Assembly: GCA_947034895.1 (NCBI GenBank)
Contig: OX344762.1
Span: 70,736,981-70,800,980, forward strand
Direction of reading: 5' to 3'
Length of the DNA stretch: 64,000 nucleotides
Source of the DNA: Rhytidiadelphus loreus
Lineage: Eukaryota > Streptophyta > Bryopsida > Hypnales > Hylocomiaceae
The notes under the pieces were generated by a model. That model was not told the DNA's origin. It worked only from the letters and a program-made list of their open reading frames with translations, and searched no databases. Shown one piece after another: positions 16,801-57,240 of this stretch. Within the stretch, counting starts at the first letter, position 1, and every line of letters starts with the position of its first letter. Both the position numbers and the translations under genes were made by a program.

Positions 16801-16890
16801 TTTTCATTTCCAATCCTTCAGTAGGAAATCAACGCACTTTCAATAGATTGACGAGATGCATGGTTGAAGATTTGTTTCAATTGTCTTTAA

Positions 16891-17806
16891 CCCCTAAAGG
16901 AGTAGTGTCCCTTCTAGGGACAAATGGAATTTTGGACAAGTACCTACGGGTTGAACTTTTGTCATGATTTTTTGAAACTATTTTTGAAGATAGAAAAAAT
17001 GATTAGCTTAATAGGAATATAACTTCTTTTTCAATTGGTGCTCATAATCAAAGGTTGTGCCCAATTAAACTCAAAACAAGGAAGAAGGGTCAACAAAAAC
17101 AATTGGATTTTTTTTTGGATTTTTTTAATCTCATAGATTATATTTTTTTTCTACATAGAAAGCTTTGATTCATTCCATTTGGATTTGTTATGGACAATCT
17201 TATTTTTTGGGCAATTAGAGCATCTTTTTGAAAAAATAACTTGTAGGATTTATTTTTGAATGCAATTTTTACAATTTTACAAAAGAAGAAGTTTCACATG
17301 ATTTAGTTTTCTTCCTAGAACAATCTCATCATTGGAATTAGTGATTTTTTAATTCTATCTTAGAGATATTAACAATTTAGATTTCCTTGTATCTCATACC
17401 TACTTCTACTTAATAGTTTTTAAAGAATAAAAATTAAGTTTTTTTGATTTTTTTCATGGACTCCCGGGATGGACTCCCAACTCAATTTCCTACAACAAAG
17501 ATTTGAAAGCTTAAAATACTATAGTGCAAATTTTTTAATTTAATTCAATTCAATTTCAAATAATCTAATCTCGTGATGTGCTGAAAAACTTATTTTTTCC
17601 ACTTTGAACACAAATATCTTGCAATCTGTGTGGTCAAAAACTTGAAATTTTTTCCACACATTTTTATACTGATTAGGTGTATACATTTTTATACTGATTA
17701 CATTTTTCTATGGTCACATGTGCAAAAGAAATAATTTTCAAAAAAATTTACTCTTTGCTATAGAAATGGCAGTTCTAAGTGTCTTTTAGCAAAAAAAAGG
17801 CCTTAT
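16891..17806 (-). mobile_element. TTAA-flanked CCCCTAAAG element, right end truncated
   Basis: Starts TTAA (16887-16890) then CCCCTAAAGGAGTAGTGTCC and continues with the element's order of phrases in reverse orientation relative to 40579-41502. It ends at 'ggcctta' (about 17806), lacking the final 'gggactttaggggttaa'. No open frame, so non-autonomous. Confidence 0.7.
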
Positions 17807-23824: not shown

Positions 23825-26800
23825 ATGGAGAGCAAAGGGAAATTGTGTCTGGACAGGCATACTCTCCCCAGCAATCCCTTTACACAGCTTACTTCTGCTA
23901 TCGTGGAGAATCAAGGCAGTGGAGATTTCTCCTCTCAGGATGGATCCCTGCCATCATCTTCCTCAACCTCGTCTGAACGTAACCATACAATCGACTGTGC
24001 TGACGACGTGAGAGCTTTGCTGAAGGATGACGAAGTACGTGCCATGCTGAAGAAGGTGACAGTTAACGAAAGTCTATTGAATAAGGCGATCCTGAGCTTG
24101 GGTGGCGGGGAGAAAGGTCTGAAGAGTTTGATGGGGTATATTATGTTCTGGGTGAAGCAACAACGAGAGAGTAAATCATCTTCTCAGCAACCAGCACCTC
24201 CACCTTCCAATCCAGCGTCGCATTTCTCCACTGCAGGGGATGTGGTTCTTCAGCCGAACTTAGACGCGATTCAGATTCTCAGCAACATTCTGCAGCCCCC
24301 TTCAGCAACGCAGGTTTCTGATCAAGATGTACATCCTTTTCAGCGCTTCAAGTCTCGAAGGCTAATGATGGGGGAACCAGAGATGGATGCTGGACTTGGA
24401 GGTTTAGACACTGGGTTCTGTCCGAGCAGTTTCATCAGTACCCCGGAAGACTATAAGCCTGAGATGGCGAGTCCTGGTATTATGGCTCCATGCATCCCTC
24501 AGCTGAATTATGGAATGCAGCAGCAGCAACCAGTAATTCCCTTTACAGCTGCACACATTGCCATGGCCTCTATGCAGCCGACTCTTGCCATGACCACAAA
24601 AGCGGCACGAAGACACAGAATGGCCCGGCAGAGGCAATCCTTTCATGCACGAGCAGCCAGTCATGCTGCAACAACCCCTGTTTCTTTAGGCGGTGGATCG
24701 ACATGGAATAATGCTGCTGCACCTCCGTTAGTGAAGAATTCAGGGATGCCAGGTGGCCGGACTGCTCCACAAAATGCTCCTGTCACTGCTGCACGGAAGG
24801 TACGGTTCAGTGCTGCTCGGGAATGATCTCTAGCAAATATTGTAGACGCCAACCCAAAACTGATGACTTTGTAAAGGAGATGTACAGTACGTTTGAGAGT
24901 CTCGTTTTGTTTTTGTACTGGAGAGTTTTGAAAGACTCCCAGGGTAGCATCTCATTGACTGTGAGCGTTGAGTTCTCTGAAATGTTGAGATTTGTCAAGC
25001 GACTACTGGTTAATACCTAAGTGCTTGAAAGTAAAAATAGAAAGTCCTCTTTGGAAGCTTGTAGCCACTAATGGTAACTTCCAAAACTTCTTTCTGCTGT
25101 TCAAAAACGTAGGGGATGGTTTCTTCTTCCTCTTTGAATGTTTGTTACCGTCTTTGAAGCAGTCATTCATTTCAACTCATATAAATATAGAAGTGTCCAC
25201 TTCTGGCTATGTAGACACTTTGAGAATTCCCCCTCCAAGTAGCAAATTGCCACTTCCATATCATTTTGGAAGCTTCGAAGAGGGTAACAAAATATATCAA
25301 TAGAATGAAGAAACCATATCCACATTTCTAATCTGAGGAATATGCTTTTAAAGTTGCTATAATCGACTCTTATCTTCTAAAGTGGGCTTTCTATTTTTAG
25401 CTTAGGTGAAATGCACAGTGAATTTAAATCTGTACCCCTTACATGGTTAAAATTTCTTTGGAGTGTGCCCCCATGAGTCTCTTTAATTGTGAGGATATTC
25501 CATATTCCTTCGTTTTTTCTGACGTTTTAAAACTTTTTCAGAGGCGCAATATGGAATCTTTGACTTTACTTCTTCAAAAGGAACTTCGACCGAGTGATGT
25601 CGGTAATCTCGGGCGTATTATAATTCCCAAGGTGAGTTGACTGCCTTTTTTCCACTTGATTGTAGATACTGTTCGAGCCATTTCAATTATCATAGAATTG
25701 TGTGCAATTGGTTACCCGACATTAACTTTCTATTCACCACTCGTGACTCATTTTGTAGAAAGAAGCAGAGCAGTGCATGCCGTCTCTTGCATCACGAGGA
25801 GGTGTCTCCATACAGATGGAAGATTTTGACTCAGGTCATGCCTGGAATCTCAGATACAGGTATGCATCGGTTTGTTTAGTTCCTCATTTTTAATTCTCTT
25901 TATTTCTTATGGTAAGAAGCTTTGGGCAGTAAAAATCTAGAGCTCGTCATTAAGTCGTATATCATCTCTTCTTTTTTGTATTTGCTTTTAGTCCTTTCCC
26001 TATTAGTCGTGATTGGCACCAAGTGCTTTTTTCCATATCCTGGTGTCGTCGTGTTTTGCATGGGGTTCCTCTCGCCTTGGGATTTTTGAGCCATGCTGAT
26101 GGAAGGTGGACTTTTGGATAGTTTCCTAGACCTCGCGGAGTTTTTTTTGCATTTTTGAACTATCTAGAGGTTACGTTTAGAATAAGTTTAGTTATTTCTT
26201 GAGGCGTACGAGGAATTTTTTTCTATAAATTTCCCATCCTTGAATTGCTGTTTGTTGTTGCTTGGTGTTTCTTCCAGTGTAACACCTCCGCCTAAAGTCG
26301 GGTCTTCACCCTTAGTTACTTCGGGTTCTTCATCGTAAGTATGGATATTGTTTATTATGAAGATTTCTTATTAGCTCGCGTGTGCTTCAACTCCTAGATC
26401 CGGTGCTGGTAACAGGGGTGGGGAAACTAAAATTTAAGAGTTAACCTACGGCTGAAGAAAATGAATCCAATGTTCAATATCATCTGCATTATTCTGGGGT
26501 GGTCTGACTCCATCCAAACCGTTAAATAGATGGTCTCCATGCCCCTTGTCTTGGAAGTGCTTAACCTTTTATGGACTTGTTTTTTTTGAGTAGGTTCTGG
26601 CCAAACAACAAAAGTCGGATGTATGTATTGGAGAATACTGGTGAGTATCCTGGACTTGCAATTCATTGAGATTTGTTCATATCTTAATTTCGTTCAACAC
26701 CTCAATTAGAGTTTACGATTTCTCAACTGTTCACATCCAGTTTCTGATTACGATCAAACGACTGTCTTCATGTTTTGCAGGGGAGTTCGTGAAATTACAC

Positions 26801-27435
26801 CGCCTAGTGGAAGGCGATCTAGTCTTAATTTACAGAATTCAGCAAGGGGGTTATGTAAGTTTTTTTGTTTTATTGGGTACAACTCTGATGATTTGATGAG
26901 TAGATGAACATCTTGGAGAGCTGTTAAGTCTTCCTAGCGTAAATGACTTCATCTTGTTGGACAAGTGTCTCCGTGGACCTATGTAAGGCGGAGTATTAAG
27001 ATATCTAAAAAATAACGGGGTTAGTTTGAACTCCCTATTTTTATTGTAAATTTGATGACTGAAATCTGAGCTGTGTATTTGCAGGTTTTGCGAGGAATGA
27101 AGAAGAAAACACAAAGGCTAGACATAGAACCTGTACAGGTTAAATTTGCACACAGCTCGGCTAAAGGTTCCCTAGAGGAACCGACGTCTCTTAAGGAGAA
27201 TGGCACAACACTCGTTCAGCGGCTTTATGGAGGTGGACCTCCAGACAAGGGCGTGAAGGATGAGCCAGTGACATTCGACGACGATCCGTTTTTGAAGGAA
27301 ATGGTGCTGAGCATGGGTCCCTCTTTTGGGTCAGACAGTATTTGCCTTGAAACTTTAGAACGGTTTCCAAGTTTGAACTTGGACTTTCCCCTTGAGGAGA
27401 TCATGGCGGCGTCAAAGACAGAGCCCGAGGGTTAG
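23825..27435 (+). CDS. ABI3: ABI3/VP1-like B3 transcription factor, gene A (six coding exons)
   Basis: Exons: 23825-24799, 25542-25631, 25759-25859, 26594-26640, 26781-26854, 27085-27435; all introns are GT-AG. The product is 545 residues. Domains: B1 at about 64-116 (LNKAILSLGGGEKGLKSLM...WVKQQ), basic B2 at 258-275 (TKAARRHRMARQRQSF), and B3 at 329-437 with SDVGNLGRIIIPK, WNLRYRFWPNNKSRMY, EFVKLHRLVEGD. The tail is acidic (FDDDPF...LDFPLEEIM). In the ABI3/VP1 family, B3 binds RY elements (CATGCA) and B1/B2 work with bZIP factors in abscisic acid and desiccation or seed programmes in the nucleus. The start is chosen because stops lie just upstream and the MESKGK start aligns with MERKGD in gene B. 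The protein is shorter than angiosperm ABI3 (about 720 residues) and lacks its long N-terminal acidic region. Intron positions in B3 match the family. A cassette exon lies in the intron at 25860-26593. Confidence 0.9.
26278..26334 (+). CDS. 57-nt in-frame cassette exon inside the B3 domain of gene A
   Basis: The segment is bounded by 'tttcttccag' and 'gtaagt', both near-perfect splice sites. It is 57 nt, a multiple of three, and fits the phase of the intron it lies in (phase 2), so inclusion keeps the frame. It would change the RY-R-FW junction to RY-S and add VTPPPKVGSSPLVTSGSSS before FWPNNKS. The same exon, also 57 nt and stop-free, is present in gene B at 50518-50574. The sequence just before it ('tctataaatttcccatcctt') is also identical in both genes. 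Whether it is used in transcripts cannot be told from DNA. Confidence 0.7.
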
Positions 27436-30410: not shown

Positions 30411-30661
30411 CAATACATCCTCAATGTTTGTTCATTTAAACCCTCCATTTGGCGGTCTGGACATTTGTTCCCCCCATGTGTGCTTGAGAAGGTGAGGTCC
30501 CCGCTCGCTTGCGCAAAGGCGGACGACAACCCAAGCTCTTGCCCCCTTGCAAGTAGTGGGAGGGGGGAGAACTGTCCTCTACCCCAATTGCAATGGGGCT
30601 CAACCGCTTCAATCCCCCTTCGTGCATCGGGTCTCAATGGCCCGAGCCTTATGAGCTCCCA
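30411..30661. other. GC-rich block of unknown origin
   Basis: A 250-bp stretch of over 50% GC in very AT-rich DNA, open in several frames on both strands (for example 30410-30670 minus, 86 residues) but with no recognised motif. It ends exactly where the L2 LTR-like homology starts, so it may belong to that element or to its insertion site. Confidence 0.35.
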
Positions 30662-32411
30662 ATTCCTCACTTGGGATTTATAGTTTTTTATTTATTAGAT
30701 TATTACAATTTAAGTCATAATATAATACAAAAAGCCCCCCAAAGAGTGTAGAACCAAAATGGATATGTTACATGCCAAAATAGCATTTGGTCATGAATAG
30801 ACTTTTATCTTTAGAACAATCCCAAAATCCACTTGTAACTAGGTTAGAACCACGAAGTAGTAGAAATCAACAGGCTTGAAGGAATTTATTCAAAATAGCC
30901 TGAAATCCAGTGCATGTGACCATGCTTGGCTAAATTGGTCTAATGAGAGATAGAGAGATCCCTATATAAATATCCAAAGATAGATTTCAATTTTTCCATC
31001 CCATCAATGAAATATTAAAAAATCCAATTGTTAACATGCAAGAGTCACTTTCTCAAGACGGGCTAGTAGAAGAATCTATAGCCATTGAATAGTGCTCTAG
31101 AGTCGGATACATTCCAGGAAGTCATAAGCAAAATCCGTTCGCAAAGATTTCTTTGCATGGGAAAGATTCCTTGACTATTGGTAATTCAAGGGAGGCCGTT
31201 TTTTCCCTCCCTGCCAATGCGTATAAGACAGATACAAGAGCTTGCACACCTCTTGGAAAGTTCTATGAGAGGATCCCCAAGAAGTTTTGGAATTTTCTAA
31301 CTTGTAGAGATGCCATTTCTAGACAGTCAACCGCTTGAACCCACAAGGGAAAATTCATGGAAAATTCCCAAATTGAGGTAAAATCTCACTAAAATATAGG
31401 TTATCTTTTTTTATGTTAATAATGTGCCCTGACAAATTTCAAAGTATTTTGATAGTGGGAGGTGTCCGAATTACCAGCATTCTTCTAAATATCAAATATG
31501 ATAGGATTTACGTGGAGTTGACTGGTGTCCCGGGAGCACATGGAGTTGGAACAAAGTTAACAAGAAGTCTTTTCTTACTTTCTAGAGCCTTCCACACAAC
31601 CCTAGCTAGTCCCCCTTGTTAAAAATGGTAACCTCTGAAAGTTAGATTTTTTTACCTTTTATTGAGTCTCATTGGCACTAGTTGTCGATGAGTTTTTTGA
31701 GAGGGAAATAGGAATAAAGGGTACTTCTAGACTAAAAATGGACATTTGAAGCCAATGGAGCAATCAGTTTGTGATTTGGAGTTAAATTCCAAAATTTAGA
31801 GTTTTGGACCAGTGTAAAAAACCTAAAAGAGATGAAAATCCTAAAAGATAAGGATGAAAATCTAAAGTGATAGGATTACTTAGGTTAGAAAGAGAGGAAG
31901 TGGGTGTCCCGGGAGAGTATAAAAGGGTACTCTTCTTCCTCTCAAACAACCCCCATTCTTGTACTTGGGTCCACCTTATATTAGAGATTTTGGCTTTTTA
32001 AAGCCAAAAACCTTGAGCAGTGTTTCTAGGTTCTTTTCGAGTCATTATTGTTGTTTTTGTGGGTTGTAGCAGACCTTGGGGGGTCCTTCTACACCTTATT
32101 GTTACCTTGGCTCTAGTATCTGCACCCTTGAATGTGAGTATTGTGTTTAAGTGGTCCATTCACTTTCTTGTAGTCTTCATACTTTGTACTAACCCTAGAG
32201 CTTCTCTCCACCATACTTTGGAAATGTCGCTTTGGAGGGCCTCTAACTTCAAATTTTGATTACAAGTCTCATATTAACCACCTTGTTACTAACTTCCTTG
32301 TCACTAATCCAAGGTCCTACGTGTGTCTTGGAAATGTTTTAGTCAACTCACCTCATCTTAGTTTTGTAAGTAGCGTGTTGGTCCTCATGAAGGTGACAAA
32401 ACTCTACCTTT
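30662..32411 (+). mobile_element. LTR-like retroelement fragment with promoter, copy L2
   Basis: This block is homologous, in opposite orientation, to 55160-57024. Shared landmarks are 'aaagccccccaaagagtgta' (30730), 'gtggagttgactggtgtccc' (31511), 'agactaaaaatgga' (31728), and a TATA box with GC-rich flanks (31918-31925). It carries no gag or pol frame. The CACTA element at 32412 interrupts or abuts its right side. Confidence 0.6.
31918..31925 (+). promoter_or_regulatory. TATA box of the L2 fragment
   Basis: TATAAAAG preceded by 'gtcccgggagag' and followed about 30 bp later by a pyrimidine-rich start region. The arrangement is kept in inverted orientation at 55759-55767. Confidence 0.55.
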
Positions 32412-35422: not shown

Positions 35423-36350
35423 CCCCTAAAGTCCCAACTCCCAAGGCCATTTTTTTGTCAGAAAAAAATAAAAACTGCCATTTCTACTGCGTTTGTCCCA
35501 AAAAAAAAATACTTTTGGGGGATCTCAAGCGTAGGATCTTGAACTTTACTTGTTTGAGATCATGTGGTAAAAATTGTATGAAGTTTGATCGTATACATTG
35601 AGAGATATGAGCATTCAAAGTTGAAAAAGCAAGTTTTTTTTTAACACTAGACTGCAATTTCAGACAACTTTGATTGCTATTTCTGGAAAAAATGTGCACT
35701 ATGGAATTTGAAATTAAAATTTATTGTTTTGAAGAATTGAGTTGGGAGTGTAGGAAAAAAATTTCAAAAAATAAAAACTTGATTTTTATACTTCAAAAAA
35801 TTGTCAAGTAGAAGTAGGTCCAAGATTGAAAGAAAAACTAAATTGATAATAGCTCTTAGATGGGATTGAAATACAATAATCCCAACGGTGAGATTGTTCT
35901 AGGAAGCAAACTTCTCCTTTTAAAATAAACAAATTTGAGAAAATTTGAAAATTGCATTCTGAAATGAATCCTATAAGTTACTTTTTCAAAATGATGTTTA
36001 GATTGCCTAAAAAATAAGACTGTTCTTAACTTTCACATCACTAATCAAAATGGAATGAATCAAAGCTTCAGATGTAGACAAAAACATAATCTTTGAAAAA
36101 GAAAATTTAAAAAAAAATTATTTTGAATTTTTGCAATATTTTTTGTGCTGCCCGCGGAGTTCAATTCTAGGCTTTTTGTGGTATAACTTTTGCTTCCAGG
36201 TACCGATTGAACTAAAAATTATATTCCCACAAAGCTTACCAGATTTTCTATCTTCAAAAAAAGTTTCAAAAAATTAGGGTACAATTTCAGCCTGTAGGAA
36301 CCTGCCCGAATTCCAAGTTGTCCCTCGAGGGGACAATGGGACTTCAGGGG
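35423..36350 (+). mobile_element. TTAA-flanked CCCCTAAAG element, 928 bp
   Basis: The left end is CTAA (35419-35422, one change from TTAA) then CCCCTAAAGTCCC; the right end is GGGACTTCAGGGG then TTAA (36351-36354). A near-terminal palindrome TCCCTCGAGGGGA lies at 36321-36333. It contains the uninterrupted site matching the CACTA insertion in 18603-20630. No transposase frame. Confidence 0.85.
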
Positions 36351-36404
36351 TTAAAAAGGATAAAAACTATGATTCCTAAATTCTTCTCATTACCATTCTC
36401 AACT

Positions 36405-40252: not shown

Positions 40253-40578
40253 TGCAACATTGACAACATCACGGAGAGACGCGCGCGTGGCTCAGCAAGC
40301 AAAGGGTCCGAAACTCCGAATAACTTCGTTGCAGAATCCAGAAGAAGAACCCACGACGACGTCCATTGACGAGGTCAGACAATTATCATAATTTAAAGGT
40401 TCAAAAGGAGCGACTCCAATAGTATATACTTGTGGGTTCGACCATCCAGACCTAATCACCTAATCACTTAAGCAACTGTGGAACAGATGGTGAGCAGTTG
40501 AGTGTGATGAGTGTGATGGAAGTTTTTCCCGTGGAGGGAGATAGGAAATGTTGTGATTGCAAAATTTTCATAATTTAA

Positions 40579-41502
40579 CCCCTAAAGGACCAGGGCCGTT
40601 ATTCTGTCAAAAACTACTCAAAACTGCCATTTTTGCTGCATTCATCCAAAAAAACAAAAAAATACTTTTTTTAGAATCTAACCATAGGATCTTGTACTTT
40701 ACTAGTCTAGTATCATGTGGTAAAAATTTCATGGAGTTTGACAGTACAGATTGGAAGATATTAGCATTCAAAGTTGAAAAAAGAAAGTTTTTTTGAACAC
40801 TAGCCTGCAATTTCAGATGACTTTGAATGCCATTTGGGGAAAAGAATTACACCATGGACCTTGAATTAAAAAAAATTTGTGTTGAAGAATTAAGTTGAAA
40901 GTCTAGAAATTTTTAAGAAAAAAAAACATGATTGATTTTCATTTCTTTAAAAAATTGTTCAGTACAAGTAGGTCCAAGATTGAAAGAAAAACTAAATCTT
41001 TAATAGCTCTAAAATGGGATTGAAACACAATAATCTCAACAATGAGATTGTTCTAAATAGAAAAGTTAACCTTGTCAAGCAATTTTTTTTGAAAAATTGT
41101 GAAAATTGCATTCAGAATTGAATCCTATAAGTTATTTTTTCAAGAAGATGCTCAAATTGCCCGAAAAACAAGATTGTTCATAACTTTCACATTACTAATC
41201 CAAATGGAATGAATCAAAGCTTCACATGTAGACAAAAATATGATCTTTAAGAAGAAAAAAATTAAAAAATTAATTTCAAATTTTTGTAGATTTATTTTTC
41301 TGCCCGGTGACGTGTAAATTATGTTTAAGATGCCATAACTTTTTCTCTCGGGCACCAATTGAATTAAAATTTATATTCCCACGAAGCTCATAAGTTTTCC
41401 TATCTTATGGGAAAGTTTCAAAAAAATTCACTGAAAATTGAGATCATAGGAACTTGCCCGAAATCCATTTTGTCCCCCGAGGGGACAATGGTCCTTTAGG
41501 GG
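40579..41502 (+). mobile_element. TTAA-flanked CCCCTAAAG element, intact, 924 bp
   Basis: Best-kept copy. TTAA lies on both sides (40575-40578, 41503-41506). The ends CCCCTAAAGGACCA and TGGTCCTTTAGGGG form a perfect 14-bp inverted repeat. A TCCCCCGAGGGGA palindrome lies just inside the right end. No frame for a transposase. The combination of CCC termini, a short inverted repeat and TTAA duplication is that of piggyBac-type elements. Confidence 0.88.
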
Positions 41503-41506
41503 TTAA

Positions 41507-42325
41507 TTTGCAAAATCGAAATTCCTGAGAATCTCAGGAGGCAAAAAGTGTTCCGAACAAATATTTGACGTCTAGAGTTCTACAATTCCACTTGTAGTAG
41601 AAGAGACTACTTCCTGCTCAAGCCTGCAAATTTCAAAATAATACACTGCCATAACATTTGGGATTCATCAATTGTTCCTTGTAGCCTTGCAAATTGTGCA
41701 TGTTATTACAACCAATCTCCCAAATACAGTTCACAAAAAAGTTTTGCCCTAGCTAGAAATAGTGGTACCCTACAAGTTTGGGATCCATCTCTGGTTGGTA
41801 ATGGGTGGTCTGACTCTAATGTACTAGTATGCCTTGTCTTATTGCAACAACCAAAATCAAAGTAAAAAGTAATTTTCTAAATTTTCTAATTTGTAAATTT
41901 TTTATATTCAAAACTTTTATATCATAAGTCCAAATGCCATGAAACAAAGTCACTGCACTATTCCATTTGTAGAGGACTTTCCAACCGTACAAAGAACATA
42001 ACTGGAATATACATGTTTTAGGAGATTTCACTGTAACAAACAAACAAAACTAAACTAACTAACTAACTTAAGGTAAGGACTAGTGTGCCTTGTGCTATTG
42101 CCATAGTCAGAATAAAAATAAAGTTATAAGTATTTTTTTAATTTTTTAATTTATAAAAAATTCAAAATTCAATATCTTTTCTACCATGAGTCAAAGTTTG
42201 CCACGAAATAAAGCTTCGCTCCTTTCCTCATGGAGAGCATTCCAAGAGTATCAAGAACATGACTTGGGGATGTTCGGTCTAGGAGATCTCACCATAACAA
42301 ATAAATAAACTAACTTAAGGTATGT
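41507..42325. repeat. Intergenic spacer with a diverged 250-bp tandem duplication
   Basis: 41812-42068 and 42069-42318 are diverged tandem copies ('tgccttgt.ttattgc', 'cca..a.tcaaa', 'gagatttcac.gtaacaaa' then 'actaacttaagg'). No coding potential. Confidence 0.6.
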
Positions 42326-42329
42326 TTAA

Positions 42330-43254
42330 CCCCTAAAGGACCAGGGCCATTCTTCTATCAAAAACTACTCAAAACTGCCATTTCTGCTACATTCATCCAA
42401 AAAATATATACATATACTTTTTTTAGAATCCAATTGTAGGATCTTGTACTTTACTAGTCAAAGATCATGTGGTAAGAATTTCATGGAGTTTGACCGTACA
42501 GATTGGAAGATATCAGCATTCAAAGTTGAAAAAAGAAAGTTTTTTTGAACATTGACTTGCAATTCCAGATGACTTTGAATGCCATTTGTTAAATTTTTTT
42601 GCACCGTGGACCTTGAATTAAAAAAAAATTGTGTTGAAGAATTGAGTTGAAATTCTAGAAAAAAAAAATAAGAAAAAAAATGTTTGATTTTCATTCTTTA
42701 AAAAATTATAAAGTAGAAGTAGGTCCAAGATTGAAAGAAAATCTAAATTGTTAATAGCTCTAAAATGGGATTGAAACACAATAATTTGAACGGTGAGATT
42801 GTTCTAAATAGAAAACTTAACCTTGTCAAACAATTTTTTTTGAAAAATTGTGAAAAGTGCATTCAAAATTGAATCGTGTAAGTTATTTCTTCAAAAAAAA
42901 TGCTCAAATTGCCCAAAAAACAAGATTGTTCATAACTTTCACATTACTAATCCAAATGGGATGAATCAAAGCTTCACATGTAGACAAAAATATGGTCTTT
43001 AAGAAGAAAAAAATTAAAAAATTAATTTCAATTTTTTGTTGATTTCTTTTTCTGCCCGGTGACGTGAAAATTATATTTATGATGCCATAACTTTTGCTCT
43101 GGGGCACCAATTGAAATAAAATTTATATTCCCACGATGCTAATAAGTTTTCCTATCTTATGGGAAAGTTTCAAAAAGTTTCACTAAAAATTGAGATCATA
43201 GGAACCTGCCCAAAATCCATTTTGTCCCTTGAGGGGACAATGGTCCTTTAGGGG
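42330..43254 (+). mobile_element. TTAA-flanked CCCCTAAAG element, 925 bp
   Basis: Left TTAA (42326-42329) and right CTAA (43255-43258, one change). Same inverted ends as 40579-41502 (CCCCTAAAGGACCA / TGGTCCTTTAGGGG) and closely similar throughout, so the two are recent sister copies. It marks the inner edge of the right arm of the inverted duplication. Confidence 0.88.
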
Positions 43255-45056
43255 CTAAATTAAAATAGTTGTAATGTTCTGTACTATTTTTTCCAATTTT
43301 AATTGCATCTATTCTTTTCTTCCATACTTTATTTTATCCCACTATGTAGAAATTGCTCACAAATATTAACAGTTTATACCATTATATTTGAGTTTCAAAA
43401 CAAACAAACAATGGTATCCAATGGTCAAGGTCCAATGATTTTTCTTCTTGAGATAGATGGTGGAACTTTTGAAAATTTGTTTTTTTCAAATAAAAGTTGC
43501 CCTATTAAGTATGAATCTTTTTTTTTATGAACTAGCTAAAAGCATCTAAGGACAATTTCATTAAAATGGCGCCATTCCACTACTTTGACAGTTTTGACAA
43601 TTCAAACTAGGTAGTTTGAAATGTACAAATATTCTAAATGTTTGAAATCTATATCTTTTCTAAATGTCTGAAATCTACACTTGTCCTAGATGCCACTTTC
43701 ATAGTTCAGATCATGCAATCTGAAAGCTTTACCACTACTAAATTTTTTAAATCTACAAAAGTCAAAGATTTCTATAATCTATATCTTTCCTAGATGGCAC
43801 TTTACAATTCAGATTGAATGGTCTTAAAATGGCACATGGAATACTGCCATTTTAACAAAATTGCCCATATATCCTAAGATTAACCATGTATTTTAATGCT
43901 AACCTTCACCTCCGCATATAGTAATCCCATAGGTTTGCAATTTTTTTGAAAAGTACTAAAATTTAGAAATCAATAAAGTCATTGACTTTTACCATGATTC
44001 CTACTAATAACTATCACTTCAAATTGTAGAATTCATAGGGAGAGTTTGGTAGACTAGGTCATGTAGACCTAGTTAGCAAGTGCTATTTTAAATAAAGATT
44101 ATAATTCATTATCTAAAAAAAATCAATTAACCCTAAATTCTCTCCACTTCAAAATTATTTATCTCTATATAAAATAATTAGAGATCAAGTTCATTAGCCT
44201 AGCTAGAAATTGACTTCTTCACTGTCACTTTTCACCCTAAAGGAAGTGCTTATTATTTACCACCAATGATTAAATTTTAAAATTTGAATTCATATTTGGA
44301 ATCAAAGACCCTAAAGTAGATAGTAGAGGTAAAGAAATACAAAATTGTCTACAAAAAAAAAGTGGGCTATTTTTTTAATATTTTTTCAAAAGAACAACCA
44401 ACACAAACAATGATGGTATTAATTATGTGAAGGCAAGTTAGATTATAGTGTACATTGATAAACAAAAACATTCACCTATCATAAAATAGGGCATATATTT
44501 AAGTTCATCCACCAAGGAGGTTGATTTAGGAAGAATGCAAGGTGAAATACTAAAGATTATTAATAAAGTGTAATGTTTTCCTTCCATTTGTTGTTGAATT
44601 CTATCATGTAGCTAGGGGACTATTGAAGTGTTCCATATAATTATGACTATAAATTTTCCTTGTAGAATGTCTCCAACTTTGCAAATGGTGCAACATAGTT
44701 GTAAAACAACAAAGGATTTAGTGCATGATTTGGGGTCTTTGCAAAGTTGCTTCAAAGACTCACCTACTTGATATCTTAAGGTTCCATTTAGTCTTGATTT
44801 TGAAAATTCACATAAATTTTGAAGACTCTCCTGAAATATAGTTTTGTTGCATTTGACTACAAGTGAAAAATATTCCCTAATTGCAATTTGGACTATTAAT
44901 ATCTATGCTCATCAAGTAAAATAAGCAATTTGAGGTGGTTCTACACTCTTTGAGCATCTACTATATTGCACTCAAAATGTTGGACATTCACCAAAGTCAA
45001 TGGTAAGTGCTTTTGGACCTCTGAATCTTTTCTTTGCACTAGATCTTGGCATGTTA

Positions 45057-47820: not shown

Positions 47821-50800
47821 ATGGAGAGAAAAGGAGACCTCTGGATGGACATGCATACGTCTGCCAGCATTCGCCGGGGACGATCTCCTGCTTTTGTCTT
47901 GGAGAATCAAGGCCGTGGAGATTTCTCAACTCACGATGGATCCCTTCCATACTATTCGTCCTCCTCCTCTGAACGTCACAGTTCAACAGATCTTATCGAC
48001 AGGGCTGCCGAGGCCACTGCTATATTGGAGAATGGCGAAGTTCACACTATGCTACAGGATGCCGAAGTACGTGCTGTGCTGAGGAAGGTGACAATTAACG
48101 AAGGCGTGCTGAATAAGGCAATCCAGAGCTTGGGCGGTGGGGAGAAAGGTCTCAAGAGTCTGATGGGGTATATTCTGCTGTGGGTGAAACAACAAAGGGA
48201 CAGCAAATCATCGTCTCAGAAACCACCACCATCATCTCCCCCTTCCATTCCAGCTTGGAATTTCTCCACTGCGCAGAATGTGTTTCTTCAGCCCAGCTCT
48301 GATGCATTTCAGATTCTCAGCGGCATTCTGCAGTCTCCTCCAACAACGCAGCTTCTTGACCAAGAGATGAGGTATACTCGGCGCTTGAAGTCCCGAAAGC
48401 TAATGACTGGGGAGCCAGAGATGGTTGCTGGACTTGGAGGTTTAGACACTGGTTTTTGTCCGAGCAGTTTCATCAGGAGTCCGGAAGTCTGTAAGCTTGA
48501 GTTGACGAGTCCTGATATAATGGCTCCATGTATCCCTCAGTTGAATTATGGATTGCAGCAGCAGCAGCACCCGGTGACTCCCTTTGTGAGTGCACACATC
48601 GCCACGCCTTGTGTAGAGCCGACTCCTGCGATGACCACGAAAGCAGCTCGAAGACACCGAATGTCTCGGCAGAGGCAATCCTTTCATGCACGAGCAGTCA
48701 GTCCTGTTGCAGCAGTCCCTGTTTCTGTCGGCGTTGGATCGTTATGGAATACTAATGCTGCCAAACCTCCAGCAGTGACGAGTTTAGGGATATCCGGGGC
48801 CCAGACTACTCCCCCAATGGCCCTTGTCACTGCTGCACGTGAGGTACGGAATGACCTCCACCCCAAATTCTAGGCGTCGTCTCAGAACTGTTTATTTTGC
48901 AAAGGAGCTGTACTGTACAGTATGGTTAAGAGTCCCTCTCATTTGCAGTACTGGAGATGTTTGGGAAAGACTCTGGAGATACAGTCAAGACTGGTTCAAA
49001 GCTCTGTTCTGTTAAAAGTTGTGTGTTGAGGTTAAGAAGCATGGAACTAGTAGACATGCCATTGGGGGACCTTAAAAGTGACACTTATTAACCTCCAAGT
49101 GCGTGAGCTTCAAATAAGAAGTCCACTTTGGAAGTTTGATACCGTAAGCCTAGGTCAATTTTCACCTCTGTATGTCTAAATGTGGTTAAATTTGGAATTT
49201 AAACAGTAGGAAATGCCATTTTGTCATTTTTGAATTATTGGGAAAATTTCTAATTCAAGCGCTTCAGATTTCGCAAAGAACTAAAAATCTTCAAATTGAA
49301 TTTTCTTTGCTTTGGGGATGTTGGTCTACAAATTTGAAAAGCATTGGACATGCTTCAATTTTTGCTATTTATTTACGAAACTGACCCAGGCGTGGGTTAT
49401 AGCCAATAATGGTAACTTCCAAACCTCATTTCTCCTGTTCAAAACTGCTGGGTTATGATTTCTTCTTTGCAGTTTAATTCGTTACCTTCCTTGGAAGATT
49501 CCTATATATGATACAATCCAACTCCTTAACTTATGGAAGTGGCCAATTTGGGGTAAATAAGCTCTTATAGGTTAACGCCCAAGTCGCAAATGGTCACTTC
49601 CATACCAAATGTATTCCCTTCGGTCTTTTTCATCTATGGAAACTCCTCTAAGGTTACTATAATCGACTCTTTGCTTCTAAAGACAAAAAAGGTTGGGTGC
49701 GAATTCAACAACTGTAGCGCTAACACCCTTCGATTTACTTCGTAATGTTCGCCTGGGAGTCTTTCGACTTGTGAGGATGATCCATATTCCTTCGTATTAC
49801 CTGAAGTATACTTTTAAAGTTTTCCAGGGCCGCAGCATGGAACGTTTGACTGTGCTTCTTCAAAAAAAACTTCGACCGAGTGATGTCGGCCATCTCGGGC
49901 GTATTATACTTCCCAAGGTTGGTTGGCTGCTTCTGATCCACTAGATTGCAGATACTGGTGCAGACGTTCTAATATTCATAGTATTGTATAGAAAGGGTTT
50001 CCGGGACTTGCCTTCTATTCACCCCTCGAAACGATTTGTGCAGAAAGAAGCAGAGGAGCGCATGCCCTCTCTTGCAACAAGAGGAGGTGTCTCCATACAG
50101 ATGGAAGATTTTGACTCAGGTCATGCCTGGAATCTCAGATACAGGTATGGATCGGTTTGTGTTAGTTCCTCATTTTCAATGCTCTTTTCTCTTAAATTGG
50201 TAAGAAACTTTGGGAAGTAGTAGTTTGGAGCTCGTGAATTTGTCGTTTAGTACTTCTTCTACGTCGTTTGTGCTTGTCTATCCCCTGAATAGTTGTGAAT
50301 TGGCACCAAGTGCCTTTTCCATAGCCCGGAGTCGCTGTGTTTTGGATTGGGTTCCCTATTGCGTTGGGATGATTTGAGGTCTGGTGATGTGGAAGGGTGG
50401 ATTGTTGGATAATTTCGTAGACTCCACGAAGTTTATCTGTGATTTGTGGGATGCGATTTTTCTATAAATTTCCCATCCTTGAATTGTTGTTTGTGGTTGA
50501 TTGTTGTTTCCTTCCAGTGTAATACCTCAGCCTAAGATGGGGTCTTCCCCCCGAGTTACTTCGGGCACTTCATCGTAAGTCTGAATATTGTTTATTATGA
50601 AGGATACTTCTCGGCTAGCATGTGCTGCAACTGCTAGATCCGTTTCTAGGAATGGGGCAAGGGAAATTAAAATTTAGGCAGTTCAACTACGGCTGAAGAA
50701 AATGTCCTTAACGTTCGAAGATCATGTGCATCATTCTGGGTGTTCTGGTTCCATCCAAACCTTAAAATAGGAGGTCTCTTGCATCTGAGCAGTGCATAAA

Positions 50801-51680
50801 CTTTTATGGACATGTTTTTGTGATTAGGTTCTGGCCAAACAACAAAAGTCGGATGTATATATTGGAGAATACTGGTGAGCATCCTGGAATTGCAAGTCGT
50901 GGAAATTGGTGTCTTGTTCATGTCTTAATCTCAATCACCATCTCAAGTAGTGACAACTCATTCAAGACCAAATCGTTCGCATCCAATTGCTGATTTCGAT
51001 CTAACTATCTTCGTGTTTCGCAGCGGCGTTTGTGATGTCACACGGCCTCCTGGAAGGAGATCTACTCGTAATTTACAGAGTTCTGCAAGGGGGTTATGTA
51101 AGTATCACTTTTGGGGTATGGCTGTGATGATGTGCTGGATAGTTGAGCATCTTCGAGGGCTGTCTTGGTAACAAGAGATGCTTTATTGATGATCCCGTCT
51201 TGATCAATAACTGTCTCAGTTAACCTGTGTGAGGTTGACTATTGGAATTACTCAGGAAGGGTAGGTTCAGATTGAACTTGCTCGGTTCATCGTAGATTTG
51301 ATTCTGAAACCTTAGCCGCGTATTTGCAGGTATTGCGAGGAATGAAGAAGAAAAATGGAAGGCTAGACATAGAACCGGTACTGGTAGAATTGGCACACAG
51401 CTCGGCTAAAGGTTCCCGAGAGGGACAACCTTCTCTACACGAAAATGGCACACTCGTCCAACGGCTGTATGGAGGAAGTTCTTCAGACACATCCGTGAAG
51501 GAGGAGCCTGTGAATCTGGACGACGATCTTTTTTTGAACGAAGTGATCCTGAGCTTGGGTCCTTCGTTTGAGTCTCACAGCAGTTGCATTCAAACGTTGG
51601 AACGGTTTCCAAGTTTGACCTTGGACTTCCCCTTTGAGGAGATTATGGCGGCGACAAGGACAGAGCCCGATGGTACATGA
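47821..51680 (+). CDS. ABI3: ABI3/VP1-like B3 transcription factor, gene B (six coding exons)
   Basis: Exons: 47821-48843, 49828-49917, 50044-50144, 50828-50874, 51024-51097, 51330-51680; all introns GT-AG and at the same positions as in gene A. The product is 561 residues: B1 at about 80-129 (LNKAIQSLGGGEKGLKSLM...WVKQQ), basic B2 at 271-289 (MTTKAARRHRMSRQRQSFH), B3 at 345-453 and an acidic tail. The role is as for gene A: a nuclear DNA-binding regulator expected to recognise RY elements and act in abscisic acid-linked programmes. Differences in B3: Leu-Gln-Lys-Lys-Leu where A has LQKEL, ENTAAFVMSHGL where A has ENTGEFVKLHRL. The Gly-to-Ala change after ENT alters a usually conserved turn. 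Start chosen by alignment with gene A. Exon similarity and partly alignable introns show a moderately recent tandem duplication. Confidence 0.9.
50518..50574 (+). CDS. 57-nt in-frame cassette exon inside the B3 domain of gene B
   Basis: Bounded by 'tccttccag' and 'gtaagt', phase 2 on both sides, no stop. Inclusion would insert VIPQPKMGSSPRVTSGTSS after RY-S and before FWPNNKS. It differs from the gene A version at about ten of 57 bases, yet length, frame and both splice sites are kept, including the shared core K-x-GSSP-x-VTSG-x-SS. Confidence 0.7.
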
Positions 51681-55159: not shown

Positions 55160-57024
55160 TGCTATCGGTTGAATATTTGGAAATTAACAAAGATATCTAC
55201 GTGTGGATATTTGAAAACTAACGCAGCCTCGCCCTTGGCGGCTGTGTAAAACACGCTAAACTTTTCTAAGATCAAAGCTTCGCCGTTCTACATGGGCCTC
55301 TATAAAACATGCTAAGCTGTTATAAGGTTAAGATCAAAGCTTCGTCGTGAAGGAGGTAGGAGGCCCCCAACAATGGATAAACTTCAACTTTAGTTGACTG
55401 TGGTTTGGCTAATCCCACTAGCCACAACCGAGAAAGACTAAGGACAACACACTCTACTTCTCAAGCACTAGTGGACTTCCAAAGGGGCATCGCCAAGGTA
55501 TGGTGGGGGGTACCCCTAGGGTTAGAACGATGTCTCCATAGCCCACTCAAAAATCACTTCCAAAAACGCACAAGTATCACTACAATGGAGGTAAAAAGGC
55601 TATCTCGCAAAAGTGGGACCCAAACAAGCAAGCAAGTACCAAGAGTAACCAACAAGTATGCAAAAGAGGCCCAAAAATATAGTTCAACTACAAAATAATT
55701 TGGACCCAATAGACCCAATAACAAAATGAAGGGGGTGTTTTGGGAGGGAGAAGGGCCCCCTTTTATAGGTTCCCAAAGGCCCACTCCCCCCTTTAACTTA
55801 CTACTAGTAACCTCATCTTTCCGGATTTTCATCCTTATCTTTTGAGATTTTCACCTAATTTTGGATTTTACGTTGGTTCTAAAATCTATCTTTTGGAGTT
55901 TAACTCCGAATCGCAAACGGATTGCACCAATGGCTTCAGAAGTCCATTTTTAGTCTACAAAAATTCCATATCCCCTGTTCCCATTGCGAAAAATCCATCG
56001 GAAACTAGCGCCAACTGAAGCTAGTGAAAAGGATAAAAATCTAACTTTTGGAGTTTATCTTTTCCAACTTGGATAACTAGCGAGGGTTGTTGAAAGGATC
56101 TTAGGTAGTAAGAAAAGACCCCTTGATGACTTCGTTCCAACTTTGTGCACTCCTGGGACGCCAGTCAACTCCACGAAGATCCTATCATAATCAATAATTG
56201 GGGGAATGTTGGTGATTCAGTTGCCTCCCGCTATCGGAACACTGTGAAACTTGTCGAGGTGCGTTATTAACATAAAAAAGCTAATCTAATTTTTAGTGAG
56301 ATTTTACTGCAGCCTGGATAATTTATACAAATTTCCCGTCGTGACTTTTGGTGGTTGACCGCTCGAAAAAAGATCCTTTGGAAATAAAAAAAACTGAGAC
56401 TTTTGGAGGAACCTCTCATGGAATTTTCCAAGCCACATGCCAAGTCTTGAGTTAGCCTTGTGCACGGTTGATGGAGAGGTAAAAACTGACTTCTTTTAAA
56501 TTATCGACAGTCAGGGAATCTTTCACATGTGAAGAAATCTTGGCAAATTGATTTTGTTGTGGATTCCCTAACATGGTCTTAATCTAAGAGCACTATTAGT
56601 GGCCGTGGATTCCTCCATGTGACTTGTCTTAGTAAAGTGACACCTACATGCTAACAATTGAGATTTCTAATATTTTGTCGATGGAATGGGGAAATTAGAA
56701 CTTATCTTTGGAGATTTACGTAAGGACCTCCCTATCTCTTCTGGGACCAATTTAGCCAAGTATAGTCACATGCACTAGATTTGGGCTATTTTGATAAGTT
56801 CCTTGCAAGCCTATCGTTTTCCACTACTTTATGATTTTAACCCATATACAAGTGGGATTTGTGGGTATTCTAAAGATAAAAGGCTATTTATGACCAAAAG
56901 CTATATTTAGTATGCAACATACCTATTTTGGTTCTACACTCTTTGGGGGGCTTTTTGTATAATATTATGCCTTAAATTGCAACAAACTAAAAAAACAAAA
57001 ATTATGAGTCTCAAGTGATGAATT
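55160..57024 (-). mobile_element. LTR-like retroelement fragment with promoter, copy L3
   Basis: Reverse-oriented homologue of L2 (30662-32411), sharing the 'ccccccaaagagtgtagaac' start (about 56950), the 'agtcaactccacg' region (56163) and the TATA box (55759-55767, minus). It also shares 'gcttcgccgt' and 'tttttagtgagattttac' with L1. No gag or pol frame. The minisatellite at 54830-55115 may be its downstream part. Confidence 0.6.
55759..55767 (-). promoter_or_regulatory. TATA box of the L3 fragment
   Basis: TATAAAAGG on the minus strand followed by 'gggcccttctccctccc', the same design as at 31918-31925. Confidence 0.5.
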
Positions 57025-57240
57025 TGGGTCTTACACATATACAATTAAAGAAATGGGAGGTTAAGTTTTAGTGAATGAACAACAAAGCTCAACCTTCTAA
57101 GGTTTATATCAACACAAAATATGTAGTACAAGTTTAGAGTAGGAAGAATAAAAATGGTGATGAAGGAAATAAGAAGAAAAAAGTGGCAAGTGCTAAAAGA
57201 TAACAACAAACAAGAGTTAAGATGCAACAAGAAATAACAA

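What the first reader, a model, noticed from the sequence alone, without database searches (positions are those of the whole stretch)
26278..26334. Conserved 57-nt in-frame cassette exon that would split the B3 DNA-binding domain (gene A)
Seen: in the intron between the RY and FWPNNKS codons a 57-nt stop-free segment has strong AG and GTAAGT borders and fits the phase. The same segment, same length, same phase and same borders, occurs in the paralogue (50518-50574) while bases within it have drifted by about 18%. Known: ABI3/VP1 B3 domains run RYRFWPNNKS without a break, so this exon is not part of the standard fold. Inference: a two-state splicing switch that makes a normal DNA-binding form (skipped) or a form with a 19-residue Pro/Ser/Thr-rich insert in the B3 core (included), possibly unable to bind RY or acting as a competitor.
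Basis: partly seen in the sequence, partly recalled or inferred. Interest (0 to 1): 0.9.

Follow-up and report, generated by a model that had tools for sequence, protein, structure and literature searches.

The report
Optional exon splitting moss ABI3 DNA-binding domain
In mosses, a gene of the ABI3 family, which in plants links a stress hormone to drying tolerance, carries a small extra exon that would add 19 amino acids in the middle of the part that grips DNA; the exon is real and shared with other mosses, and relatives show products with it and without it, so it may work as a switch on DNA binding.

Summary
The window is moss DNA with two ABI3/VP1-type B3 genes. The 57-nt segment at 26278-26334 (paralogue 50518-50574) is a real in-frame exon: the annotated Ceratodon purpureus relative and a spliced JGI contig encode it (RY-SVTPPPK.GSSP..-FWPNNKS). 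Between gene A and Ceratodon 18 of 20 residues are identical, the best-kept segment of the protein. Pohlia nutans and another JGI contig have plain RYRFWPNN. Inclusion and skipping are thus both attested, but in different species; a switch inside one species is not shown. The paralogue argument alone is weak (47/57, no better than the intron). The own genome holds a tandem array: five copies have an open main frame (one without its usual start codon), four of these five keep the cassette, one has lost both splice sites. The insert falls inside the beta4-triad that tunes B3 affinity and splits the R66 codon. A model keeps the B3 core but ends strand beta4 in a low-confidence insert. Best reading: a conserved optional exon giving an ABI3 form with weakened or altered RY binding. 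Binding and regulation are untested.

The parts
23825..24799 (+). Gene A exon 1 (N-terminal part; holds the basic motif KAARRHRMARQRQSF, called B2 from memory)
   Evidence: open frame, donor, alignment to gene B and to moss proteins
25542..25631 (+). Gene A exon 2 (start of B3)
25759..25859 (+). Gene A exon 3 (B3 up to ..NLRY + first two bases of the R66 codon)
26217..26277 (+). Conserved intron stretch upstream of the cassette, with polypyrimidine tract and acceptor
   Evidence: 56/61 identical to gene B; acceptor score 6.4
26278..26334 (+). Gene A cassette exon, 57 nt, 19 codons; peptide between RY and FW: SVTPPPKVGSSPLVTSGSSS
   Evidence: near-identical peptide in Ceratodon P0001 and related peptide in JGI contig protein P0124
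26335..26364 (+). Conserved intron stretch downstream, starting with the donor gtaagt
   Evidence: 26/30 identical to gene B; the block ATATTGTTTATTATGA is identical in A, B, L021, L022, L023, L026, L027 and L028
26594..26640 (+). Gene A exon 5 (FWPNNKSRMYVLENTG)
   Evidence: 46/47 identical to B
26781..26854 (+). Gene A exon 6 (rest of B3)
27085..27435 (+). Gene A exon 7 (end of B3, C-terminus, stop)
47821..48843 (+). Gene B exon 1
49828..49917 (+). Gene B exon 2
50044..50144 (+). Gene B exon 3
50518..50574 (+). Gene B cassette exon, 57 nt; peptide SVIPQPKMGSSPRVTSGTSS
50828..50874 (+). Gene B exon 5 (FWPNNKS...)
51024..51097 (+). Gene B exon 6
51330..51680 (+). Gene B exon 7 with stop

Best explanation
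The segment is a genuine, evolutionarily old, optional coding exon in a branch of ABI3/VP1 genes seen here only in mosses. Skipped, the gene makes a standard B3 domain (RYRFWPNNKS). Included, it replaces the single Arg66 of strand beta4 by a 20-residue Ser/Pro/Thr-rich, probably flexible stretch. The B3 core probably still folds, but the edge of beta4 that lies along the DNA backbone is cut and one of its charged residues is gone, so the included form should bind Sph/RY sites more weakly or differently while keeping the N-terminal part that, in VP1/ABI3, pairs with bZIP factors. The ratio of the two forms would then set how far ABI3 acts by its own DNA contact or through partners. Shown here: the exon, its conservation, its presence in a spliced moss contig and in the Ceratodon gene model, and its absence from other moss sequences. 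Inferred: use of both forms in one species, regulation, and the effect on binding.
For: Included form: annotated protein KC19_4G250700 of Ceratodon purpureus (P0001) and JGI contig protein P0124, whose frame runs from the end of exon 1 through exon 6 without introns. Skipped form: Pohlia nutans P0003 and JGI contig protein P0002, same clade. Insert, A versus Ceratodon: 18/20 identical, against 196/320 in exon 1, 52/60 and 39/48 in the flanking B3 and 82/107 at the C-terminus; 18/20 or better without selection came up in 1 of 20000 runs at 30% change per site and in 0 of 20000 at each of 40, 50 and 60%. Own genome: 4 of 5 copies with an open main frame (L028 lacks the usual start codon) keep an intact cassette. 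L027 keeps the main frame with a dead cassette, so the skipped form is the one kept there. The junction lies in the beta4-triad 64/66/69. Model of P0124 with insert: block pLDDT 87-97 for residues 11-70 and 97 for 101-130, but 70 and 53 over the insert; strand beta4 ends at residue 71, inside the insert, while in the insert-free control P0125 (another protein, not the same one without insert) it runs on through the WPN part. The model still superposes on FUS3-DNA 6j9b, TM 0.90 by target length, 0.68 by query length. The Pfam B3 score falls from 56.4 to 45.0 bits (A) and from 50.5 to 41.0 (B) with the insert, still above the cut-off of 30.1.
Against: No RNA of the window's species was seen. Included and skipped forms come from different species, so an obligate exon in one branch and an obligate loss in the other is not excluded. 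L022 and L027 show that the cassette can be lost. P0124 keeps only 14/20 and B 15/20 of A's insert. The five open cassettes vary at codon positions 1/2/3 by 5/3/8, a weak sign of coding selection within this genome. The 57 nt are no more alike between A and B than the intron around them. The predicted model keeps the B3 fold, which also fits an insert that leaves binding intact. Contigs behind P0002 and P0124 were not read as DNA, only their proteins; the RNA basis of the Ceratodon model and of the Pohlia record was not inspected.
Confidence: 0.62

Rival explanations
1. The exon is not a switch: it is constitutive in the Ceratodon branch and simply skipped (a relic) in the Pohlia branch, to which the window's moss is closer.
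For: Included forms come only from P0001 and P0124, skipped only from P0002 and P0003; window A groups with Pohlia and P0002, away from Ceratodon; one copy here with an open main frame (L027) has lost the exon.
Against: Gene A, nearest to Pohlia in the tree, still keeps both sites, length, frame and 18/20 residues, hard to explain for a relic in this branch; B, L021 and L028 also keep an intact cassette.
Confidence: 0.22
2. Low-level splicing noise: a cryptic exon in an intron, conserved because introns of related duplicates are alike.
For: A-B identity of the 57 nt equals that of the intron; all sites and frame survive in 5.9% of neutral runs; weak donor; cassette rate over seven copies only slightly below the intron.
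Against: The same peptide at the same junction in Ceratodon and P0124 is not expected from neutral drift of an intron.
Confidence: 0.06
3. The insert does not weaken DNA binding but serves another role, for example a phosphorylation or partner site in a loop that leaves the B3 fold and its DNA contact intact.
For: Model with insert keeps the B3 fold; the insert is Ser/Thr/Pro-rich and its GSSP core is constant in A, B, Ceratodon and P0124; seven flowering-plant ABI3 models among 215 readable junctions carry two extra residues at the same place.
Against: R66 is lost and beta4 is cut; beta4-triad exchanges far milder than this change binding and activity, although R64K plus R66K alone had no effect in yeast.
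Confidence: 0.3

Closest known systems
Alternative splicing of ABI3/VP1 in seed plants (Arabidopsis ABI3-alpha/beta, pea PsABI3, tomato SlABI3-F/T, flax LuABI3, Medicago SF1-3, wheat and rice VP1)
   Same: Same gene family; splicing makes isoforms with altered DNA-binding or activation parts (PMC10060653, passages; PMC8398556, passages).
   Different: Those in the passages mostly remove or truncate domains, shift the frame or retain introns; none of the passages seen describes a conserved in-frame cassette inside B3.
beta4-triad variation of B3 domains (LEC2 K64/K66/S69 versus ABI3 R64/R66/P69)
   Same: Same strand and residues; changes there tune DNA affinity and in vivo activity (PMC8136769, passages).
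   Different: There by point substitutions between genes; here by an optional exon that would interrupt the strand.
Two-residue variants RY-S-[LIF]-R at the same junction in annotated ABI3 proteins of carrot, celery, faba bean, Erigeron and others
   Same: Extra residues at the same exon junction.
   Different: Two residues that keep R66, probably an alternative acceptor (inferred); seed plants; no sign of homology to the moss exon.
Microexon switches inside DNA-binding domains of other factors (e.g. Trichoderma Xlr2, seen in a search listing with the start of its abstract)
   Same: A small exon decides the state of a DNA-binding domain.
   Different: Unrelated domain and organism.

Membership tests
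ABI3/VP1 B3 transcription factors | B3 DNA-binding domain | tested here: met
   PF02362 at 56.4 and 50.5 bits without insert (cut-off 30.1); best solved relative FUS3 6j9b, E 2.1e-32
ABI3/VP1 B3 transcription factors | ABI3-type B3 signature RYRFWPNNKSRMY.LENTG (signature as seen in the listed ABI3 proteins) | tested here: met
   in the skipped form of A (RYRFWPNNKSRMYVLENTG); B reads RYRFWPNNKSRMYILENTA, one residue off
ABI3/VP1 B3 transcription factors | Groups with moss ABI3 proteins in a tree | tested here: met
   13-row moss clade (100/100), next to the 8 rows with Physcomitrium and Ceratodon 2G, Sphagnum outside (29 chosen rows, one search, midpoint root, some long branches)
ABI3/VP1 B3 transcription factors | N-terminal bZIP-pairing (COAR/B1) function and B2 basic motif | tested here: inconclusive
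   KAARRHRMARQRQSF seen in exon 1; label B2 recalled; no function test
Regulated alternative cassette exon | AG/GT borders, length a multiple of 3, phase fit, open frame | tested here: met
   A, B, L021, L023, L028; not met in L022 (stop), L025/L026 (interrupted) and L027
Regulated alternative cassette exon | Conservation across species beyond the intron background | tested here: met
   peptide in Ceratodon and P0124; DNA of those species not available
Regulated alternative cassette exon | Both isoforms in RNA of the same species | not testable with these tools
   no RNA reads available; forms seen in different species only
Regulated alternative cassette exon | Inclusion changes with condition or tissue | not testable with these tools
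   needs RNA

The most novel reading that the evidence does not exclude
Mosses outside the Physcomitrium lineage run a conserved splicing switch that takes the master regulator ABI3 on and off its RY sites by opening strand beta4 of the B3 domain with a 19-residue exon, a means of gating drying- or ABA-responsive genes that acts on RNA processing rather than on ABI3 amount; duplication then let some copies (L027) become skip-only specialists.
Probability: 0.35. Interest if true: 0.78.

Novelty: new variant of a known kind. Interest (0 to 1): 0.62.

Why it matters
ABI3 acts in drying tolerance and ABA response in seeds (PMC8398556, passages) and in the desert moss Syntrichia (PMC9141515, passages). 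An optional exon placed exactly in the residues that tune B3 affinity gives a testable way in which one gene could make a DNA-binding and a DNA-weakened form. Of the 120 proteins listed, two are named as Physcomitrium, and both fall outside this gene branch, so the usual moss model may not show the exon. The skip-only copy L027 and the intact copies A, B and L021 sit in one array and offer a ready comparison.

Tried and rejected
Poison-exon reading (inclusion leads to a stop): rejected for A and B, both included frames are open; it would fit only L022, whose main frame is broken anyway. Exon shared by all moss ABI3 genes: the RYR|FWP intron of the genome's C4 gene of the main ABI3 branch (L029, 401 nt) has no similar peptide, though it has open in-phase AG..GT stretches of other sequence. 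L030-L032 were not modelled; the peptide search gave nothing convincing there. Conservation of the 57 nt between A and B as proof: rejected. dN/dS of the insert between A and B is 0.46, slightly under the whole gene (0.54) and the two B3 halves (0.52, 0.77), but from only 10 changes, too few to weigh. Rate over seven copies: cassette 0.404 changes per site against 0.438-0.512 for intron parts outside the conserved stretch, a small difference. A search with only the region around the insert scored 12 candidates and returned 4 proteins, of which only P0001 has the insert. Whether the island occurs elsewhere in the genome did not complete, the machine being busy at each try. Papers: eight searches answered; nothing in their listings, nor in the passages read of five papers, describes this exon. 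The library holds only open-licence papers, so this is not proof of absence from print.

Full report
WHAT IS THERE. The window lies at C2:70736981-70800980 of a 407-Mb genome. It holds two ABI3/VP1-type genes on the + strand, A and B, each modelled with six exons plus the reported cassette. The proteins nearest to gene A are, where named, from mosses: Ceratodon purpureus 67%, a JGI contig 63%, Pohlia nutans 62%; a tree puts A with B and next to the Pohlia group. The source is therefore taken to be a moss; the species was not identified.

THE OBSERVATION. Every stated feature holds: 57 nt, acceptor ttccag, donor gtaagt, phase, open frame, same in both genes, 10 of 57 bases different. Of 36 candidate exons that pass a loose site score in A's intron, this is the only one that is in frame, open and conserved in B (matrix recalled, approximate). 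But conservation between A and B does not prove function: 47/57 is no better than the intron (Fisher p 0.50), and a neutral simulation keeps all features in 5.9% of runs. The surrounding 148 aligned columns are better kept than the rest of the intron between A and B (129/148; 34 of 5000 permutations, scoring chosen by me); over seven copies the difference is small.

THE DECIDING EVIDENCE. A protein search with the included form gave 172 proteins, the best 120 listed. The best, KC19_4G250700 of Ceratodon purpureus, contains the insert: RY-SVTPPPKLGSSPLVTSGTSS-FWPNNKS. A search with a three-row profile (126 proteins, best 120 listed) found P0124, on a JGI contig of 990 nt, with RY-SVTPPPKMGSSPLSKSATPS-FWPNNKS. 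Its frame runs from the end of exon 1 to exon 6, so the introns are gone and the exon is in; I take it to be RNA-derived, but the contig itself was not read. Of 243 proteins listed over three searches, 215 have a readable FW.NN junction by the pattern used; 186 count as uninterrupted there (the pattern is loose: P0113, RYRYRFW, counts among them), 2 carry this insert, and the other 27 are other inserts, read-through, unusual residues or truncations. Seven of the 27 are flowering-plant proteins with two extra residues (RY-S-[LIF]-R) at the same junction. Pohlia nutans P0003 and JGI P0002 (contig of 2804 nt), both in the same moss clade, are uninterrupted. Between gene A and Ceratodon the insert is 18/20 identical; exon 1 is 196/320, B3 before the insert 52/60, B3 after it 39/48, the C-terminus 82/107. 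P0124 is 14/20 and B 15/20 against A, so not every copy is so well kept.

THE TANDEM ARRAY. A protein search of the own genome and twelve fetched stretches, eight of them from this row, show that A and B are part of a row of related genes over about 0.48 Mb. L021 (70.86 Mb): main frame open, cassette intact. L028 (71.24 Mb): frame open but the usual start codon is missing (a Met lies a few codons on), cassette intact with a weaker-looking donor gtaact. L027 (71.23 Mb): main frame open, cassette dead (AG to CC, GT to GG, 58 nt). L022 (71.04 Mb): frameshift near the end of exon 1; cassette 57 nt with an inner TAG. L023 (71.06 Mb): exon 1 broken; cassette intact. L024: homology ends early in exon 3. 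L025 and L026, about 74 kb apart: exon-3 side and exon-5 side of what looks like one gene whose cassette is interrupted by sequence with CACTA...TAGTG ends and a repeated ATC. So 5 copies (A, B, L021, L027, L028) have an open main frame, 4 of these 5 with an intact cassette. L027 is a natural skip-only gene; L022 shares its extra C, so the frame break probably came before they split. The C4 gene of the main ABI3 branch (L029) has no similar peptide in its intron.

HOW IT MOST LIKELY WORKS. LEC2 and ABI3 B3 domains differ at 64, 66 and 69, the beta4-triad (K/K/S versus R/R/P); beta4 lies along the DNA backbone, and exchanges there change affinity and activity in yeast and plants, S69P most, while R64K plus R66K in ABI3 had no effect in yeast (PMC8136769, passages read). 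Matched to the LEC2 alignment, the triad is the R-Y-R-F-W-P of our genes (my mapping), so the intron splits the codon of R66 and the cassette puts 20 residues, with Ser at both joins, where R66 stood. An AlphaFold model of P0124 (mean pLDDT 84.1) keeps the B3 core at high confidence, gives the insert low confidence (block means 70 and 53, then 74 for the FWPNN block), and ends beta4 at residue 71; the insert-free control P0125, a different protein (mean 91.3), has an unbroken strand 58-68 that runs on into WPN. The model with insert still matches FUS3-DNA (6j9b, TM 0.90 by target length). The included protein is therefore expected to fold but to hold DNA less well or differently. Its N-terminal half is unchanged, and VP1/ABI3 N-termini work with bZIP factors (PMC8136769, passages), so a form acting through partners is plausible. 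These last steps are inference.

WHAT IS KNOWN. Splicing isoforms of ABI3 are well known in seed plants (PMC10060653 and PMC8398556, passages read): mostly truncations, frame shifts, retained introns, loss of activation or B3 parts. [quoted passage not shown] No passage or listing seen mentions an in-frame exon in B3 of a moss ABI3 (searches). The mechanism type is known; the place, the moss conservation and the natural skip-only copy are what appears new.

LIMITS. No RNA of this species; the two forms come from different species; the RNA basis of the Ceratodon model and of the Pohlia record was not checked; DNA of the other mosses was not available; the genome-wide search for further copies of the cassette did not complete. 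The claim that Ceratodon and this moss are far enough apart for neutral intron sequence to be lost rests on recalled moss divergence times and rates.

Noticed in passing
G000 C2 about 70.76-71.24 Mb (window, L021-L028): Tandem array of ABI3-type genes: A and B in the window plus L021, L022, L023, L024, L025/L026, L027 and L028, several of them broken.
   Followed up: yes
L025 near 4312 and L026 near 3770: What looks like one gene copy is split inside the cassette exon by about 74 kb of sequence whose ends read CACTAGAAGAAACCC... and ...GGGTTTCTTCTAGTG with ATC on both sides, as of a CACTA-type transposon with a 3-bp target duplication.
   Followed up: partly
P0004 (Logan contig protein, relative of gene B): Its frame at the same junction reads RYKYGSVLAKQQK, as if a donor 10 nt downstream of the usual one were used, giving a frameshift: a possible third splicing outcome at this junction.
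   Followed up: partly
P0067, P0072, P0076, P0078, P0081, P0089, P0094: Flowering-plant ABI3 models with two extra residues (RY-S-L/I/F-R-F/Y-W) at the same B3 junction, probably an alternative acceptor 6 nt upstream.
   Followed up: no
window 30658-31971 and 55712-57027: Inverted duplicate (about 74% identical) lying outside genes A and B; the duplication around them is wider than the ABI3 genes or includes repeats.
   Followed up: no
window 40574-41516 and 42325-43266: Two direct copies, 90% identical, about 1.75 kb apart, with further partial copies at 35441-36354 and (inverted) 16886-17658: probably repeat or transposon sequence between the genes.
   Followed up: no
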